From Kutzneria buriramensis (GTDB lineage: Bacteria; Actinomycetota; Actinomycetes; Mycobacteriales; Pseudonocardiaceae), in assembly GCF_003387475.1 (NCBI RefSeq), contig NZ_QUNO01000017.1, positions 1 to 64,000 on the forward strand: a stretch of DNA of 64,000 nucleotides. The letters are read 5' to 3'. Below, piece after piece: positions 1,290 through 52,496 of this stretch. A model generated the notes under the pieces. It was not told where the DNA came from, did not search any database, and worked only from the letters and a program-made list of their open reading frames with translations. How positions within the stretch are numbered: position 1 is the stretch's first letter; each line of letters starts with the position of its first letter. The translations under genes and the position numbers were made by a program.

Positions 1290-2386
1290 CCCCGCTCACG
1301 GTCCTGGATCTGGTGCCGATCTCGTCCGGATCGACCGCCGGCCAGGCGCTGCGCAACAGCGTCGACCTGGCTCGGCGGGCCGAGGAGTTCGGCTACGCCC
1401 GCTACTGGGTCGCCGAGCACCACCTCAATCCCGGCGTAGCCGGCACGTCCCCGGCGGTCGTGCTGGCGCTGACCGCCGCCGCGACCTCGACGATCAGACT
1501 CGGGTCGGGCGCGGTGCAGATGGGGCACCGCACAGCGCTGTCCACAGTGGAGGAGTTCGGCCTGCTCGACGCCGTCCACCCTGGCCGCTTCGACCTCGGA
1601 CTCGGCCGGTCCGGCGGTAAGCCCCGCGAGCCGGCGCCAGCTTCGGCACCGGCTCCACATGCGTCCAACGGATTGCTGATCCCGGCCCGGTTCTCGTACG
1701 CGCAGCTGCTGGCCTCGCCGCGGGTGGCGTTGCAGCGCAGGCTGTTGCAGCTGCCGAACGCACAGCCACAGGACTACGCCGACCAGGTGGACGACGTTCT
1801 CGCCCTACTCGCCGGAACGTACCAATCGGACGGTGAGGAGGCCCACGTCGTGCCGGGCGATGGCACCGAACTGGAGCTGTGGATCCTCGGCAGCAGCGGC
1901 GGCGAGAGCGCGACTGTCGCCGGCCGTCGTGGGCTGCGGTTCGCCGCCAACTACCACGTCAGCCCGGCCACCGTGCTGGAGGCCGTCGAAGGTTACCGCG
2001 CCGCGTTCCGTCCGTCGGCAGAGCTCGAACGCCCGTACGTGAGCGTCTCGGCGGACGTTGTCGTCGCCGAAACCGATGCAACGGCACGAGAACTGGCCAC
2101 GGGGTACGGTCCGTGGGTGCACAGCATCCGCACGGCGCTGGGCGCCATTCCCTTCCCGACGCCCGACGAGGCCCGCGCGCACAGGTGGACGGACGACGAC
2201 CGGCAGCTGGTCGCCGACCGGGTGGACACGCAGTTCGTCGGCACACCGGCACAAGTGGCCGATCAGCTGGAACTGTTGCGGGACGCCACCGGCGCGGACG
2301 AGCTGATCATCACCACGATCACCCACGACCACACCGACCGTGTCAGGTCCTATGCACTGTTGGCCGAGGAGTGGCACGGGCGCTGA
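1286..2386 (+). CDS. MsnO8-like LLM class oxidoreductase
   Basis: This 366-residue protein opens with LTVLDLVPISSG and continues with RRAEEFGYARYWVAEHH, the start pattern of the MsnO8 branch of luciferase-like monooxygenases. A second landmark is the HPGRFDLGLGRSGG stretch near residue 110. The ATG overlaps the previous stop by four bases. It ends the three-gene monooxygenase operon and converges on the MFS gene, leaving a gap of only 27 bases. The role in oxidising an organosulfur compound is inferred from context; the family is clear. Confidence 0.88.
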   Translation: MTPLTVLDLVPISSGSTAGQALRNSVDLARRAEEFGYARYWVAEHHLNPGVAGTSPAVVLALTAAATSTIRLGSGAVQMGHRTALSTVEEFGLLDAVHPGRFDLGLGRSGGKPREPAPASAPAPHASNGLLIPARFSYAQLLASPRVALQRRLLQLPNAQPQDYADQVDDVLALLAGTYQSDGEEAHVVPGDGTELELWILGSSGGESATVAGRRGLRFAANYHVSPATVLEAVEGYRAAFRPSAELERPYVSVSADVVVAETDATARELATGYGPWVHSIRTALGAIPFPTPDEARAHRWTDDDRQLVADRVDTQFVGTPAQVADQLELLRDATGADELIITTITHDHTDRVRSYALLAEEWHGR

Positions 2387-22960: not shown

Positions 22961-23164
22961 ATGACACAGGGAACCGTCAAGTGGTTCAGCGGCGCCAAGG
23001 GGTTCGGTTTCATCACTCCCGCCGGCGGCGGACGGGACCTCTTCGTGCACCACTCGGAGGTCCAGGACTACGACTTCACCGGGCTCGCGGACAATCTGGC
23101 GGTCGAGTTCGAGGTCAGCGAGGGCCAGAAGGGCCCACAGGCCAAGTCGGTCCGCGTTCTGTGA
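22961..23164 (+). CDS. Cold-shock family protein
   Basis: This 67-residue protein is a single cold-shock domain: TVKWFSGAKGFGFI (RNP1), RDLFVHHSEV (RNP2) and a GQKGPQAKSVRVL ending. It binds single-stranded RNA or DNA and acts as an RNA chaperone. An upstream ATG at 22955 is only one base from the GGAG site; the ATG at 22961 has correct spacing of seven. Monocistronic, with a strong terminator 15 bases after the stop. Confidence 0.92.
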   Translation: MTQGTVKWFSGAKGFGFITPAGGGRDLFVHHSEVQDYDFTGLADNLAVEFEVSEGQKGPQAKSVRVL

Positions 23165-47943: not shown

Positions 47944-48021
47944 GGAGGCCTCCGCCCGATCCAGTGCGCGGACATTCTTGATTGGCCGACAGGATGCTGG
48001 AGGACGTGCGACATCCGTCAA

Positions 48022-48345
48022 GTCGCCCGTGACCGCCGGCGGCAGGAGCCGTCCGCCGCTGCAATCGGAAACCCTTGCTGCACCGTCACGTCAATGCCGT
48101 TGCGCCTCACGGCGTTCGACCGCCGGCTCTCCCGCGCCGTGTCACAGGCGACCGGTCAAGCCTTGGCTCTACCAGGGGATCTGGCGCCGGTAGCGCGGAC
48201 ACGTCAGCCGCGGCACGCGCCGCCTGCCCCACTGGGAAAGGCGGCGATTTCGCTTCTGTGCGTTGCGGGTTCGACTCCCGCGCCCTTCCATGACATCCCC
48301 GGCAGGCACGGAGGTGCTGGCACTGAAACTTACATGACCGGTGCT
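48022..48345. other. Non-coding stretch with tRNA T-arm remnant
   Basis: About 320 bases upstream of GH44. GCGGG TTCGACT CCCGC at 48265-48281 is a perfect tRNA T-arm, followed by GCCCTTCCA resembling an acceptor end; GGAAAGGCG at 48235-48243 could pair with CGCCCTTCC. No D-arm or anticodon arm fits. It is probably a tRNA 3' fragment, as left by integration at a tRNA gene. Confidence 0.4.
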
Positions 48346-48654
48346 CTACGCGATCACGCATTGCCTGATCTCGTGTTTCGCCCAGCACACCGTGCAGGTG
48401 TTGGCCCTGCGCAGCTGCGTGCCCGTGGGGGCGTGGGAACCGTCGACCGTGACGGTGATGGGCGATGCGATCCACGCGATGAGTTCAGCACTGGACATCG
48501 GCGCCACATCGCACTGCGCGACGCGCACGTCCTCGGTGACGAACTGCTCGCCGTGGCCGGCGGGGTAAGGCCACGGCCACGTGGCGGTCGGCGTGAACAG
48601 GTGACGGGTCACGGACGGTGGCCCACGTGTCGCCGCACCCAGCTCGCGGCTCAA
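48346..48654 (-). CDS. Hypothetical small protein with CxxC
   Basis: The minus-strand frame gives up to 102 residues. The second half has good codon use and reads VTEDVRVAQCDVAPMSSAEL, then PITVTVDGSHAPTGTQLRR and NTCTVCWAKHEIRQCVIA. The CTVC plus a later Cys could bind metal. The N-terminal third is less convincing, so the true start may be an internal GTG or ATG (for example at MSSAEL). No family recognised. Confidence 0.4.
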   Translation of the reverse strand: MSRELGAATRGPPSVTRHLFTPTATWPWPYPAGHGEQFVTEDVRVAQCDVAPMSSAELIAWIASPITVTVDGSHAPTGTQLRRANTCTVCWAKHEIRQCVIA

Positions 48655-48765
48655 CAGGAGCCCCCGGCCCAGTGGGCCACCCTGAGTCTGCGCAGGTCAG
48701 CGACGCACGCGTGGCGCCAGAGCACACATGCGTCAGCCGTCAGAGAAAATCTATGCCAGCCGGGG

Positions 48766-48795
48766 TAGACATTCGGCCGTGGGTGCGTGTAGTGT
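48766..48795 (+). promoter_or_regulatory. Possible promoter before the tandem repeats
   Basis: TAGACA (48766-48771) and TAGTGT (48790-48795) are 18 bases apart, with -35 matching consensus at five of six bases. Transcription would start near 48802 and read through the repeats. Confidence 0.35.
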
Positions 48796-48831
48796 TCTGC
48801 TCGTCACGAGAGAAAAAACGTCAGATGGCAC

Positions 48832-49335
48832 GGGAGATGACGAACTACCCGTGGAGCACAGGTAAGACGGCCAGGCATATCGGAGCCGATCACGGTACGG
48901 GGTTCCGGTGGGTGGCCGAGGACCGTCGCTCCCACCGGGCAGATACACCAGAGCCCAGCAGTGACGGTCGCAGCATGGAACGCAAGAGGGATCGACGCGG
49001 GAGATGACGAACTACCCGTGAGCAGTGGCTAGACGGTCACCGGCCGGAACCGATCGGTGAAAGGGGTTCCGGCGGGTGACCGAAGCAGTGAGCCGAAGGG
49101 GATCGGATCGTTCACTCGGTCCCGCGCGGTGACGCAGGTTGGAAATGCACAAGGCACGACAGCAGGACGCGGGAGATGGTGGACCGCCCGCGAGTCAGGG
49201 ATGAAGTGCAGGACGGTCAGGTGCGCCGGAGCCGATCGGTGAAAGGGGTTCCGGTGGGTGACCAGCGGCATCAGGTGCTGGGCCCGAGCAAGGTGAGGGG
49301 TTCCGGGCATGATCGCCGCGAGAGGACGAGCACGA
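48832..49335 (+). repeat. Three imperfect tandem repeats of about 170 bp
   Basis: Units start at 48832, 48999 and 49171. Units 1 and 2 share 22 identical starting bases (GGGAGATGACGAACTACCCG then TG). Unit 3 keeps GGGAGATG, the hairpin with GATCGGTGAAAGGGG, and TTCCGGTGGGTGACC. The rest has diverged, so this is an old duplication in which the hairpin was retained. Confidence 0.7.
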
Positions 49336-49633
49336 AAGTCACACAGTGGTTCATCACGTGTGAACAGCAGTACAGCAAGTCGAAGTACAGCAAGCGCAAG
49401 TGGCAGTACAGGTAATGCACGTCAGGTAGTCAGAGGAGAAGGGAAGGGTTACACGCCGTCGGATCGCCCGCTCCAGGCTGTGTCGCGCCGGGCGGGTACC
49501 GCAGTCCCATCGGAATGGAAGGTGGTCTTCGGTTACGCATATGCGATCCCCGCAGGTTCTGCCTCTCAGGCGGGCCACGCGGACAACGGAAGCCGGTCTC
49601 ACGGCCGGTTGATGGTGATGAACCCGAACCCCT

Positions 49634-49664
49634 GGGGCCCCGGCGCTACACGCGCCGGGGCCCC
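49634..49664 (+). terminator. Strong hairpin before MerR gene
   Basis: GGGGCCCCGGCGC (49634-49646) pairs perfectly with 49652-49664 around TACAC. It lies 18 bases before the MerR ATG, so it either ends the upstream non-coding transcript or folds in the merR leader. Confidence 0.7.
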
Positions 49665-49682
49665 TCGTGATGCGGAGGCTCG

Positions 49683-50015
49683 ATGATCCCAGACCAGCAG
49701 GACACGGCCGGCACAAGTGCGGCCGACAAGTTCGACGATGAGCACTACCCCGCCTACACGATGGGCCGCGCGGCGGAGATGCTCGGCACCAGCGCGGGAT
49801 TCCTGCGCAGCCTGGACGAGGCGAAACTGATCGAGCCGCAACGCTCGGCCGGTGGCCACCGTCGCTACTCGCGCCACCAGCTGCGGATCGCCGCCCGGGT
49901 GCGGGAACTGGTTGATCAGGGCACCGCGTTGGACGCGGCCTGCCGGATCATCACCCTGGAAGACCAACTCCACGAAGCCCAACGTGTCATCGCCGAACGA
50001 GACGACCAACCCTGA
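49683..50015 (+). CDS. MerR-type helix-turn-helix regulator
   Basis: This 110-residue protein has a MerR-like HTH, YTMGRAAEMLGTSAGFLRSLDEAKLIEPQRSAGGHRRYSRHQLR (about 26-70), then a short helix LEDQLHEAQRVIAERD. There is no effector domain, as in the small BldC/HspR-like MerR group. GGAGG lies four bases before the ATG. Just upstream is the tandem-repeat RNA candidate with its hairpin, so translation or transcription may be linked to it. The target is unknown. Confidence 0.85.
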   Translation: MIPDQQDTAGTSAADKFDDEHYPAYTMGRAAEMLGTSAGFLRSLDEAKLIEPQRSAGGHRRYSRHQLRIAARVRELVDQGTALDAACRIITLEDQLHEAQRVIAERDDQP

Positions 50016-50287
50016 CCACAGGTCCCGGTTGACCGGTCGAGGGTGTTGCTGAGGACGGTCGTAGCGGTCGGTGTCATCATTGGTCGGCCTCAGCAACTGT
50101 TCGCCCCGACGCGGCGCACGGACAACGCCTTCGGCATCGCACCGTCTGCTGGTTGCCCGTCAGCTTGTGGGGCTCGGGAACGCGATTCCATCTCCGACCC
50201 GGGTCTGCCTGGCCGCCGACCGGCGGGCTGCGACATCACGTAGTGCTGTTGTCGCTGCTCCACCTGATCGTGCGAGGCAGCGGTGGC

Positions 50288-51361
50288 TCAGCGGTTCGGA
50301 AGCGCGTAGCGAAGGATGCGTCCCCAGGTGGAGGCGTACTGCCGGAACAATGGGCCGGTGACGTAGGGAAGGCCGTAACGCTGGCAGATCGCGCGTACCC
50401 GGGGCGCGAGCGTGGCGTAGCGGTTGCTGGGGAGGTCGGGGAAGAGGTGGTGTTCGATCTGGTGACTGAGGTTGCCGGTGAGGATGTGGAAGAGGGGGCC
50501 GCCCTCGATGTTGGCCGAGCCCTGGATCTGGCGGAGGTACCACTGGCCGCGGGTCTCCTCCTGGACCTGCTCCTCGGTGAAGGTCTGGACCGCGCCGGGG
50601 AAGTGGCCGCACATGATGATGGTGTGCGACCAGATGTTGCGTACGGTGTTGGCGCAGAGGTTCCCCAGCAGGCAGGGAACCGCCGAAGGCCCCGCGAGTG
50701 CGGGGAAGAGCAGGTAGTCCTTGGCGAGTTGGCGCAAGGCCTTGGCCGCCAGTCTCGCCGCGTCGTTGACGAGGCGGCGAGGGCTCCTGCCGCCGGACAG
50801 GACCACGTCCGGTTCCAGGTCGTACAGCGCGATTCCCCATTCGAACACGGGGGCGAGCAGCGCGTTGACGAGCGGTTGGGCGAGGTGGGCCGGGTGCCAG
50901 GGCTGCTCGGGGCTCATCCGCAGGATGGTGTAGCCGAGGTCGCGGTCGCGTCCGACGACGTTGGTCCAGGTGTGGTGTTGGTGGTTGTGGGTGCGTTTCC
51001 AGGCGTCGGCCGGGGTGAGGAAGTCCCATTCCCACGTGCTGGAGTGGATCGCCGGGTCGCCCATCCAGTCCCATTGGCCGTGCAGGACGTTATGGCCTAG
51101 TTCCATGTTCTCCAGAATCTTGGCGGTGCTGAGCATCAGGGTCCCGCAGACCCAGGCGGGTGGGAACAGCGAGAACGCCAGGGCGATCCGGCCGGCGATC
51201 TCGAAGGCCCGCTGGTTGGTGATGATCCCTCGGATGTAGCGGGCGTCGCGCTCGCCGCGGGTGGCGATGACCTCGGCCCGCAGGCGGTCGAGTTCCTCCC
51301 CCAGTGCTTCGACCCACTCGGGCTGGGGCAAGGAATCGGATTCTGCGCCAGACGCGCGCAC
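50288..51361 (-). CDS. Membrane fatty acid desaturase
   Basis: This 357-residue di-iron desaturase has the three His boxes HNVLHG, HNHQHH and HQIEHH in the right order and hydrophobic segments between them. It introduces a double bond into acyl chains, like mycobacterial DesA3. It lies 19 bases downstream of a ferredoxin-type reductase gene on the same strand, which would supply electrons. Gene order and type resemble the Rv3229c/Rv3230c pair. Confidence 0.9.
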   Translation of the reverse strand: MRASGAESDSLPQPEWVEALGEELDRLRAEVIATRGERDARYIRGIITNQRAFEIAGRIALAFSLFPPAWVCGTLMLSTAKILENMELGHNVLHGQWDWMGDPAIHSSTWEWDFLTPADAWKRTHNHQHHTWTNVVGRDRDLGYTILRMSPEQPWHPAHLAQPLVNALLAPVFEWGIALYDLEPDVVLSGGRSPRRLVNDAARLAAKALRQLAKDYLLFPALAGPSAVPCLLGNLCANTVRNIWSHTIIMCGHFPGAVQTFTEEQVQEETRGQWYLRQIQGSANIEGGPLFHILTGNLSHQIEHHLFPDLPSNRYATLAPRVRAICQRYGLPYVTGPLFRQYASTWGRILRYALPNR

Positions 51362-51380: not shown

Positions 51381-52496
51381 CTAGATGTCGAGGGCGAGGC
51401 GACCGGCTGCGGCCGACACGCAGGTCTGGATCAACCGGCCGGGTTCGTCATGGATCTCGCCGGTCCTCAGGTCGCGCACTCGACCGTGTACCAGCGGGGT
51501 GAGGCAGCCGAAGCACAGGCCGCGACGGCATCCGTAGGGCATCGTGACGCCCGCCTGTTCGCCGATGTCCAGCAGGGGGACGGTGGTTGCGGCGTCGGTG
51601 TCGACACCGGTGCGGAGAAAGCGGACGCGGCCACCGGCGGTATCGCTTTCGTGCGGCGGAAACGGGGCCAGGCGGAAGCGCTCCACGTGCAGCTGCTCGG
51701 TCAGCTGGGCGTCGGCCCAGTGCGCCTCGACGGCGTGGAGCATCGCTTCGGGGCCACAGGCCCAGGTCTCTCGTTCGCGCCAGTCCGGGCAGAGGTCGGC
51801 GATACGCCCCGGGGTGACATGCCGGGACGGCTCACCGCCAGGGCGGGTGTGGTGTGGGACGAACCGGAACCAGGGCAACTGTCGGTGCATGGCCTGTAGC
51901 TCGTCGCGGAACAGGCACTCACGGATGGTGCGGCTGCTGTGGATGAGGAGCACATCAGGGTGCGCACCGGTCGGGGGGCGTTGGGCCAACGTGCGGAGCA
52001 TGCCCATCACCGGGGCGATGCCGCTGCCGGCGGTGACCATCAGGATGCGCGGCGGGGGCGGGTCAGGAAGGCTGAAGTCGCCTTGCGCCGGCCCCAGTCG
52101 CAGCACCGTTCCCGGTGGCGTGTCCTGGGCCAGACGTGGCGAGATGCGGCCGCCGGCAACGGCCTGGACGGTGATGGACAGGAGCCCGTCGGTGGGCTCG
52201 GGCGGACAGGTCAGCGAGTAGGTGCGCCAGTGCAGCGCACCGTCGATCCGCACGCCTATGGGCAGGTACTGTCCGGCTTTGTGTCCGGCCCACCCCCGGC
52301 CGGGTTTGATCAGGAGTGTGGTGGCCTTGCCGGTCTCGGGCCGCGCCGCCACGACACGTCCGGCCGGGTGGCGGGCGCACAGCAGCGGATCGATCAGGCC
52401 GAGGTAGTCGTCCACAGTGAGCGGGCTGGTCAGCCAGGTCGCCGCGGCCAACAGGGGGTTGCCGCTCCAAGCTGGACGCAGAGGGAGTGCGGGCAT
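51381..52496 (-). CDS. Flavodoxin/ferredoxin-type reductase with 2Fe-2S domain
   Basis: This 371-residue electron-transfer protein has an FAD-binding domain with RTYSLTCPP (around 91), an NAD-binding domain with VTAGSGIAPVMGML (around 155) and CGPEAML, and a C-terminal 2Fe-2S domain with CRRGLCFGC plus a final Cys in LIQTCVSA. It moves electrons from NAD(P)H to the desaturase encoded next. It starts the two-gene operon; upstream is about 300 bases before the LLM remnant. Confidence 0.9.
   Translation of the reverse strand: MPALPLRPAWSGNPLLAAATWLTSPLTVDDYLGLIDPLLCARHPAGRVVAARPETGKATTLLIKPGRGWAGHKAGQYLPIGVRIDGALHWRTYSLTCPPEPTDGLLSITVQAVAGGRISPRLAQDTPPGTVLRLGPAQGDFSLPDPPPPRILMVTAGSGIAPVMGMLRTLAQRPPTGAHPDVLLIHSSRTIRECLFRDELQAMHRQLPWFRFVPHHTRPGGEPSRHVTPGRIADLCPDWRERETWACGPEAMLHAVEAHWADAQLTEQLHVERFRLAPFPPHESDTAGGRVRFLRTGVDTDAATTVPLLDIGEQAGVTMPYGCRRGLCFGCLTPLVHGRVRDLRTGEIHDEPGRLIQTCVSAAAGRLALDI

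What the first reader, a model, noticed from the sequence alone, without database searches (positions are those of the whole stretch)
48766..49664. Tandem-repeat structured element with domain-V-like hairpins, no ORF
Three units of about 170 bp keep a hairpin in which GGAGCC, GGAACC and GGAGCC all pair with GGTTCC, while flanking sequence has drifted. This is covariation at one stem position. Two copies share GATCGGTGAAAGG inside the loop, resembling a shortened group II intron domain V, yet no reverse transcriptase is present. A promoter-like pair precedes it and a 13-bp hairpin follows, just before a small MerR gene. It could be a novel regulatory RNA, a degenerate ribozyme array or a mobile-element relic.
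Basis: partly seen in the sequence, partly recalled or inferred. Interest (0 to 1): 0.78.

Follow-up and report, generated by a model that had tools for sequence, protein, structure and literature searches.

The report
Widespread actinomycete stress-linked structured RNA
The stretch is one copy of a large, folded RNA gene that is found beside a small heat-shock-type regulator in many soil actinomycetes, often near cold-shock genes in Streptomyces, and that I could not match to any catalogued RNA family.

Summary
The observation largely holds, but it is part of something larger. Window 48747-49668 has a conserved promoter (AAATCT-N13-TAGACAT, then TAGTGT), purine-rich hairpin repeats, a multibranched core (49450-49621) and a 13-bp terminal hairpin; a merR gene (49683-50015) follows. 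A covariance model of the core finds it in 129 of 150 sampled Streptomyces-genus genomes, 1-7 copies each; other loci include Micromonosporaceae, Pseudonocardiaceae, Streptosporangiaceae, Nocardiopsis, Frankia and Actinocrinis. Pairing covaries strongly: 286 double-changed cells against 106 in shuffles, 26 of 46 pairs. No Rfam family reaches its threshold. The tandem units are a local elaboration. MerR follows in 141 of 153 evaluable places; 12 lack it, 10 of these with promoter motif and terminal hairpin. In nine genomes 27 of 29 promoter motifs lie before this RNA, and one lies before an RNA-less merR. I read it as a stand-alone structured RNA gene sharing an autoregulated promoter with an HspR-like MerR and linked to cold-shock loci. 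A purely cis-acting leader is the main rival. Group II domain V, ribozyme and mobile-relic readings are not supported. Function and expression are untested.

The parts
48747..48752 (+). conserved upstream promoter box AAATCT
   Evidence: AAATCT-N13-TAGACAT with at most 3 mismatches upstream of 153 of 155 evaluable distinct copies, 145 of them with at most one (earlier count with duplicates)
48766..48772 (+). TAGACAT box, used as -35-like element
   Evidence: same motif; reversed-pattern control 0 in 9 genomes
48790..48795 (+). -10-like TAGTGT; predicted transcript start near 48802 (inferred)
   Evidence: majority ta..gt at this place in the aligned homologues; generic sigma-70 scan found nothing
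48829..48853 (+). 5' hairpin A1 with apical loop ending GAAC
   Evidence: main form counted in 38 homologues: 95.9% paired, 36 double changes against 10.8 shuffled, but copies were picked by a stem search; the window copy is a variant with a bulged A
48879..48909 (+). accessory hairpin B1 (GGAGCC/GGTTCC)
48996..49020 (+). second copy of hairpin A
49034..49082 (+). accessory hairpin B2 with outer helix (GGAACC/GGTTCC)
   Evidence: 18-nt arms, 94% complementary
49168..49192 (+). third, diverged copy of hairpin A
49225..49255 (+). accessory hairpin B3 (GGAGCC/GGTTCC)
49277..49308 (+). accessory hairpin C
   Evidence: similar GCTGGGACCGATC..GGTTCCAGC hairpins in relatives
49432..49448 (+). conserved purine tract AGAGGAGAAGGGAAGGG just before the core
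   Evidence: SD-like, but by eye no shared start codon follows and no core frame is open throughout
49450..49621 (+). conserved multibranched core (model R1). Helices: P1 49454-49460/49611-49617, P2 49461-49466/49544-49549, P3 49467-49471/49492-49496, P4 49498-49502/49522-49526 (P2 and P4 pairs nearly invariant), P6 49550-49553/49579-49582, P6b 49559-49563/49569-49573, P7 49591-49597/49604-49610
   Evidence: 166.9 bits to R1, which was built with this copy; covariation over 99 copies
49634..49664 (+). 13-bp terminal hairpin, likely 3' end or terminator of the RNA
   Evidence: a stem of at least 9 pairs at this place in 156 of 160 distinct copies, with compensated arm changes such as GGGGCC/GGCCCC and GGGACC/GGTCCC (stem search); two merR-less paralogues lose similarity 5 nt after it; no U-run
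49674..49678 (+). SD-like GGAGG of merR
49683..50015 (+). merR gene, 110 aa, HspR-related DNA-binding protein
   Evidence: Pfam MerR_1 3.6e-12; NCBIfam HspR 51.7 bits, below the 105 cut-off; downstream of the core in 141 of 153 evaluable places

Best explanation
It is a gene for a large structured non-coding RNA (about 870 nt here, much shorter elsewhere). It starts at its own conserved promoter and ends at the 13-bp terminal hairpin. An HspR-like MerR protein, usually encoded immediately downstream and reached by read-through past the hairpin, most likely binds the AAATCT-N13-TAGACAT site and autoregulates this shared promoter. The RNA probably works mainly in trans, in the temperature/RNA-chaperone stress response of filamentous actinomycetes. 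Shown: a conserved, covarying RNA family; the promoter motif; linkage to merR; merR-less copies with intact ends; clustering with cold-shock genes in the Streptomyces genomes tested. Inferred: transcription, termination at the hairpin, MerR binding, trans action, stress role.
For: Covariation in the core with shuffled and slid controls, and in the 5' hairpin (copies picked by a stem search). The promoter motif occurs 29 times in nine genomes, 27 upstream of RNA hits (28 hits in all); reversed-pattern control 0. One of the two other sites sits directly before an RNA-less merR with a short leader (G027, L179), tying motif to MerR. 12 of 153 evaluable places lack merR; 10 of the 12 keep the promoter motif, one (L066) has no upstream DNA held, one is a degraded copy without it. 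Two of these, in G027, are 95.3% identical over 641 nt, from 12 nt before the promoter box to 5 nt after the terminal hairpin, with no further match in the DNA held. In four Streptomyces-genus genomes 11 of 16 RNA copies lie within 10 kb of a cold-shock-domain gene, 0.34 expected. The order csp, DEAD-box helicase, a third gene, RNA, merR recurs, complete in at least 6 of 142 loci although many loci are cut short. By locus-tag order the S. coelicolor HspR homologues SCO5917 and SCO4688 stand in the corresponding places after csp and helicase genes, and SCO5917 is the gene most polysome-associated at 42 relative to 30 C (9.2-fold) (PMC6009599 section 13; table passages of PMC6637917).
Against: No expression data were available. 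In most copies merR follows at once, as behind an ordinary leader. The terminal hairpin lacks a U-run. Two merR-less copies (L177, L160) have transposase-like sequence close by (my reading, no family search) and could be recent losses. The five merR-less rows of A2 pair at 80.4-88.6%, against a mean of 88.9% (sd 4.8, minimum 76.1) in 93 others (the script also put L037:640-817, 82.6%, in the first group although merR follows it). L048 has a core without the promoter motif. The window's own family shows little cold-shock linkage (2 of 12 within 10 kb, 0.15 expected) and the window's nearest csp is 26 kb away. Over the 142 loci, csp was seen in the held DNA of 27 and the helicase in 16. That SCO5917 and SCO4688 are preceded by this RNA is inferred from gene order, not checked on the S. 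coelicolor sequence.
Confidence: 0.55

Rival explanations
1. A purely cis-acting leader of merR: a long structured 5' UTR (thermosensor, attenuator or protein-binding leader) that sets MerR translation or read-through, for example letting ribosomes on at high temperature. Copies without merR would be decaying leftovers.
For: merR directly downstream in 141 of 153 evaluable places; SD about 10 nt behind the hairpin; SCO5917, probably such a gene, gains 9.2-fold polysome association at 42 C; merR-less rows pair slightly less.
Against: 12 places without merR, 10 of them with the promoter motif; a duplication spanning promoter to hairpin without merR; an RNA-less merR with the same promoter; the size and near-invariant parts of the core seem more than a thermosensor needs (judgement).
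Confidence: 0.33
2. The conserved sequences are DNA sites: an array of MerR operators, with dyads kept as protein-binding palindromes.
For: MerR proteins bind dyads (recalled); the upstream motif is probably such a site.
Against: Stems change on both sides while keeping pairing, which sequence-specific DNA sites are not expected to do; helices are nested and long-range (P1, P2).
Confidence: 0.04
3. Degenerate group II intron or ribozyme array, or a mobile-element relic.
For: Tandem repeats; several copies per genome; matches in 23 plasmid records, one of them an 11.9-Mb replicon.
Against: No Rfam intron or ribozyme match at E up to 5 on 48000-50100; no reverse transcriptase among the six proteins or frames scanned; loop motif not conserved; no common ends or target duplications noticed by eye in the duplicated copies; conserved promoter.
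Confidence: 0.03

Closest known systems
HspR (MerR-family heat-shock repressor of actinomycetes)
   Same: The downstream protein matches NCBIfam HspR over residues 23-106 (51.7 bits); SCO4688 and SCO5917 of S. coelicolor, its probable counterparts, are called HspR homologues in PMC6009599; likely autoregulated through a two-part site.
   Different: Below the HspR equivalog cut-off (105 bits); promoter motif AAATCT-N13-TAGACAT differs from the HspR site CTTGAGT-N7-ACTCAAG (recalled); comes with a large RNA.
Long leaders of cold-shock genes such as E. coli cspA (recalled)
   Same: Structured 5' RNA tied to a temperature-stress gene and to cold-shock proteins and helicases.
   Different: No Rfam match at threshold; far larger; followed by a regulator gene; exists without that gene in some places.
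Large orphan bacterial RNAs (OLE, GOLLD, ROOL; recalled)
   Same: Hundreds of nt, complex fold, conserved, function open; this one has a usual partner gene.
   Different: No Rfam family reaches its threshold; different partner gene and host range.
Streptomyces motifs of the 50-genome survey (PMC11109978)
   Same: Structured RNAs upstream of genes in Streptomyces.
   Different: The passages seen (12 of 22 places) name dauA, livJ, pntA and asfR motifs for Streptomyces, none before merR or csp; the rest of the paper was not read.

Membership tests
Group II intron domain V | match to group II intron covariance models | tested here: not met
   no group II family among matches with E up to 5 on 48000-50100; none at gathering in the window
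Group II intron domain V | intron-encoded reverse transcriptase nearby | tested here: inconclusive
   six proteins or frames of 46.0-52.5 kb scanned against Pfam, no reverse transcriptase; rest of window not scanned
Any Rfam 15 family | score at or above the gathering threshold | tested here: not met
   0 matches in the 64-kb window and in 10 homologous loci
Conserved structured RNA | compensatory base changes in homologues | tested here: met
   26 of 46 pairs with double changes, 286 cells against 106 in shuffles, slid versions 28-46% paired against 88.7% (alignment fitted to the structure); double changes also in the unfitted alignment
HspR equivalog | NCBIfam NF047375 curated cut-off 105 bits | tested here: not met
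   51.7 bits
MerR superfamily | MerR DNA-binding domain over Pfam threshold | tested here: met
   PF13411 46.6 bits, cut-off 21.6
Riboswitch or RNA thermometer | ligand- or temperature-dependent refolding that controls expression | not testable with these tools
   needs probing and reporter assays
Intrinsic terminator | G+C-rich hairpin followed by a run of U | tested here: not met
   hairpin present, no U-run, scan found none; similarity between two merR-less paralogues nevertheless ends 5 nt behind it

The most novel reading that the evidence does not exclude
A trans-acting large stress RNA of filamentous actinomycetes whose transcription is governed by a dedicated HspR-like MerR encoded at its 3' end. 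It has 1-7 copies in most Streptomyces genomes sampled, often sits near cold-shock protein and DEAD-box helicase genes there, and may work with these RNA chaperones or on ribosomes during temperature shifts.
Probability: 0.4. Interest if true: 0.87.

Novelty: new variant of a known kind. Interest (0 to 1): 0.74.

Why it matters
A large structured RNA present in most Streptomyces genomes sampled (129 of 150) but without an Rfam family would be a major addition to the regulatory RNAs of antibiotic producers. It also offers a testable cause for a published puzzle: SCO5917, an HspR homologue of unknown role, is the gene most strongly associated with polysomes at 42 relative to 30 C in S. coelicolor (PMC6009599). 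The covariance model, the promoter motif and natural copies without merR make function directly testable.

Tried and rejected
Group II domain V, ribozyme array and mobile relic: rejected. Protein-coding remnant: rejected. Phage origin: no DNA match in the phage collection at E up to 0.1 and no core-pattern match in viral contigs. Operator-array reading: rejected for the core by covariation. A promoter regulon beyond this element: the motif is almost private to it in nine genomes. A tRNA at 48235-48289: only a weak tRNA-Sec-like fragment, ARAGORN none. A solved relative of MerR: none by sequence at E up to 0.001. Searches for sRNA names at the S. coelicolor loci (scr4686-4688, scr5916-5919) found nothing. 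The first search for hairpin A accepted wrong hairpins in some copies and was tightened (98 of 156 loci with the motif; the 58 misses include many Micromonospora, Actinoplanes and Nonomuraea loci, so hairpin A is not shown to be universal). The G371 hit (25.5 bits) is taken as doubtful.

Full report
OBSERVATION. The three units, the GGAGCC/GGAACC/GGAGCC arms facing GGTTCC, the shared GATCGGTGAAAGG, the 13-bp hairpin at 49634-49664 and the merR gene at 49683-50015 are all there. The difference between arms is G-U against A-U on one side only, so by itself it is not compensatory. The stretch is purine-rich and U-poor (A 22, C 27, G 37, T 14%) and folds better than shuffles (z -3.8 with 20 shuffles; z -2.9, 1 of 200 shuffles as good).

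HOMOLOGUES. A DNA search of 100 genomes, the window's own included, found the stretch or part of it in 26, in 19 of 72 genera. In the 20 loci fetched, merR lay directly downstream in all 20. The best conserved parts are the 5' end and the last 260 nt, not the units. By simple tblastn 106 of these 119 have merR within 400 nt; 7 of the 13 others end within 500 nt. The records include Streptomyces and relatives (Kitasatospora, Actinacidiphila, Wenjunlia), Micromonospora, Actinoplanes and relatives, Amycolatopsis, Lentzea, Saccharothrix, Actinokineospora, Allokutzneria, Kibdelosporangium, Umezawaea, Nonomuraea, Streptosporangium, Microbispora, Herbidospora, Actinomadura, Nocardiopsis, Actinocrinis and Frankia. 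The same pattern had no match in viral contigs; 23 plasmid records hold similar DNA, one of them an 11.9-Mb replicon.

RNA STRUCTURE. An alignment of 30 diverse copies (A1) gave a multibranched core: P1 encloses P2 (with P3-P5 inside it), P6 with P6b, and P7; the terminal hairpin follows. The 30 were taken from 33 diverse sequences; I left out L045, L103 and L123, whose lengths were outliers. A covariance model (R1, 171 positions, 46 pairs) was run on 99 of the loci then held and gave 99 matches (two in L037, none in L025). On that alignment 88.7% of cells pair against 82.8% in shuffles, 286 cells carry double changes against 106, 26 of 46 pairs show at least one double change, and sliding the partner by 1-3 columns drops pairing to 28-46%. 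The alignment was fitted to the structure, so these figures lean towards it, and related sequences inflate the shuffle contrast; but double changes were already visible in the unfitted alignment, for example in P1, P3 and P7. P2 and P4 are nearly invariant, so they are neither supported nor contradicted; P5 (66% of cells), P6b (75%) and the inner part of P3 (78%) are only partly kept. The 5' hairpin A has 95.9% paired cells and 36 double changes against 10.8 shuffled in 38 copies. These copies were picked: a stem search found hairpin A in 98 of 156 loci, 65 distinct hairpins were listed, I took 49 by eye and then left out 11 of a bulged variant, so the pairing percentage is biased upward. Its near-fixed place, mostly 73-85 nt after the start of the promoter motif, and its loop ending GAAC support it apart from pairing. 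A terminal hairpin of at least 9 pairs was found in 156 of 160 distinct copies with compensated arm changes, again by a stem search.

NOT KNOWN TO RFAM. No family reaches its gathering score in the window or in ten homologous loci. At E up to 5 only three weak matches appear in 48000-50100, none to an intron.

THE REPEAT UNITS. The stretch from the start of the promoter motif to the core varies from 83 to 718 nt. L182 (G027) and L038 (S. alfalfae) have almost nothing between promoter and core. The window and its three nearest relatives (L001-L004) carry long versions with 4-6 strong hairpins; over 156 loci I count 206 such hairpins against about 46 in mononucleotide shuffles. The tandem units are therefore accessory and expanded in this lineage.

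PROMOTER. Upstream of the RNA is AAATCT-N13-TAGACAT followed by a -10-like hexamer. With up to 3 mismatches it is found in 153 of 155 evaluable distinct copies (120 with none, 25 with one); 9 further copies had too little upstream DNA; L048 and the degraded L163 lack it (one search gives 158 of 161 before duplicates were merged). In nine whole genomes the motif with at most one mismatch occurs 29 times and the reversed pattern never. 27 sites lie just upstream of RNA hits (28 in all), one directly upstream of a merR without RNA in G027, one elsewhere (G122). The motif is thus nearly private to this element and to merR, which points to autoregulation by that protein (inference).

MERR AND COPIES WITHOUT IT. 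In the nine genomes 23 of 28 RNA hits are followed by a close merR. Of 26 merR matches at 57% identity or more, 3 have no RNA hit: one keeps the promoter with a short leader (L179), one keeps only the last part of the RNA (L180), one is a 57% relative (L181). Over all loci, 145 of 158 instances with at least 450 nt downstream have merR. Five places are held twice; merged, this is 141 of 153 places, and 12 lack merR: L175, L176, L024, L174, L112, L131, one of two in L037, L177, L071, L160, L066 and L163/L178. Ten keep the promoter motif with at most one mismatch, L066 has no upstream DNA held, and L163/L178 is degraded (76 bits). L177 and L160 have transposase-like sequence close by (my reading). 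L175 and L176, both from G027, are 95.3% identical over 641 nt, from 12 nt before the promoter box to 5 nt after the terminal hairpin, with no further match in the DNA held. This is why I favour a stand-alone RNA gene ending at the hairpin. Against it, the five merR-less rows of A2 pair slightly less (80.4-88.6%) than the mean of 93 others (88.9%).

DISTRIBUTION. R1 hits 129 of 150 sampled genomes of one genus, 1-7 copies each; that genus is taken as Streptomyces because contigs match named Streptomyces records in length (for example G340:C6 and S. griseoviridis, 381,451 bases). In 396 genomes drawn across the phylum 12 had a match: ten of that genus, the window's own genome, and one doubtful. 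The strict filters and few scored candidates make both lower bounds; the family is clearly not general in the phylum. The window's genome has one copy.

NEIGHBOURS AND FUNCTION. In four genomes of that genus 11 of 16 RNA copies lie within 10 kb of a cold-shock-domain gene (0.34 expected for evenly spread genes); in five genomes of the window's family 2 of 12 (0.15 expected) (using 73 of the 88 rows; 15 were dropped as repeat domains of one protein, a fragment, or below cut-off). Linked copies within a genome are not independent. In the 142 loci, csp was seen in 27 and the helicase in 16; many loci are cut short. The order csp, DEAD-box helicase, a small gene that I label SCO5919-like (label recalled), RNA, merR is complete in at least 6 (L063, L075, L080, L091, L117, L128), and other copies have merR followed by csp or by csp and helicase. 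In S. coelicolor, SCO5921 and SCO4684 are cold-shock proteins, SCO5920 and SCO4685 DEAD/DEAH-box helicases, and SCO5917 and SCO4688 HspR homologues. PMC6009599 (section 13 read) places the csp genes SCO4684 and SCO5921 and the HspR homologues SCO4688 and SCO5917 among 74 genes translated more efficiently at 42 C, with SCO5917 the most polysome-associated (9.2-fold), and says that nothing is known of the roles of the two homologues. PMC2631018 (one passage) reports SCO5917 lowered by acid shock. That these two genes follow this RNA is an inference from order.

VERDICT. A real, widespread structured RNA family with a nearly private promoter and an HspR-like neighbour; most likely an RNA gene autoregulated by that MerR and tied to temperature stress; a purely cis-acting leader remains the main rival.

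Noticed in passing
window 48235-48289 (+): Weak tRNA-Sec-like fragment (24.4 bits, E 0.063), perhaps a tRNA remnant; ARAGORN finds no tRNA.
   Followed up: partly
window 50288-51361 and 51381-52496 (-): Fatty-acid desaturase and ferredoxin-reductase-like genes run convergently towards merR; a desaturase also lies 2.2 to 4.2 kb from four other copies (L051, L052, L101, L102).
   Followed up: partly
window 22961-23164 (+): Cold-shock-domain gene in the same window, 26 kb from the element.
   Followed up: no
L180 (G122 about 4651.6 kb, - strand): A merR that keeps only the 3' end of the RNA (P7, 3' strand of P1, terminal hairpin by eye), apparently a natural partial deletion.
   Followed up: no
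L174 (G551 3134.5-3136.7 kb): A merR-linked copy and a merR-less copy of the RNA stand back to back, their promoter motifs about 1 kb apart, next to a haemolysin III-like, SCO5919-like, CBS-like and helicase-like gene row (names from reading the ORFs).
   Followed up: partly
L037 (Streptomyces sp. SID3343), 640-817 and 1639-1811 (-): Two copies of the core in tandem about 1 kb apart, only the second followed by merR.
   Followed up: no
window 49432-49448 and homologues: A purine tract resembling a ribosome-binding site is conserved just before the core although no conserved reading frame follows; it could bind ribosomes.
   Followed up: no
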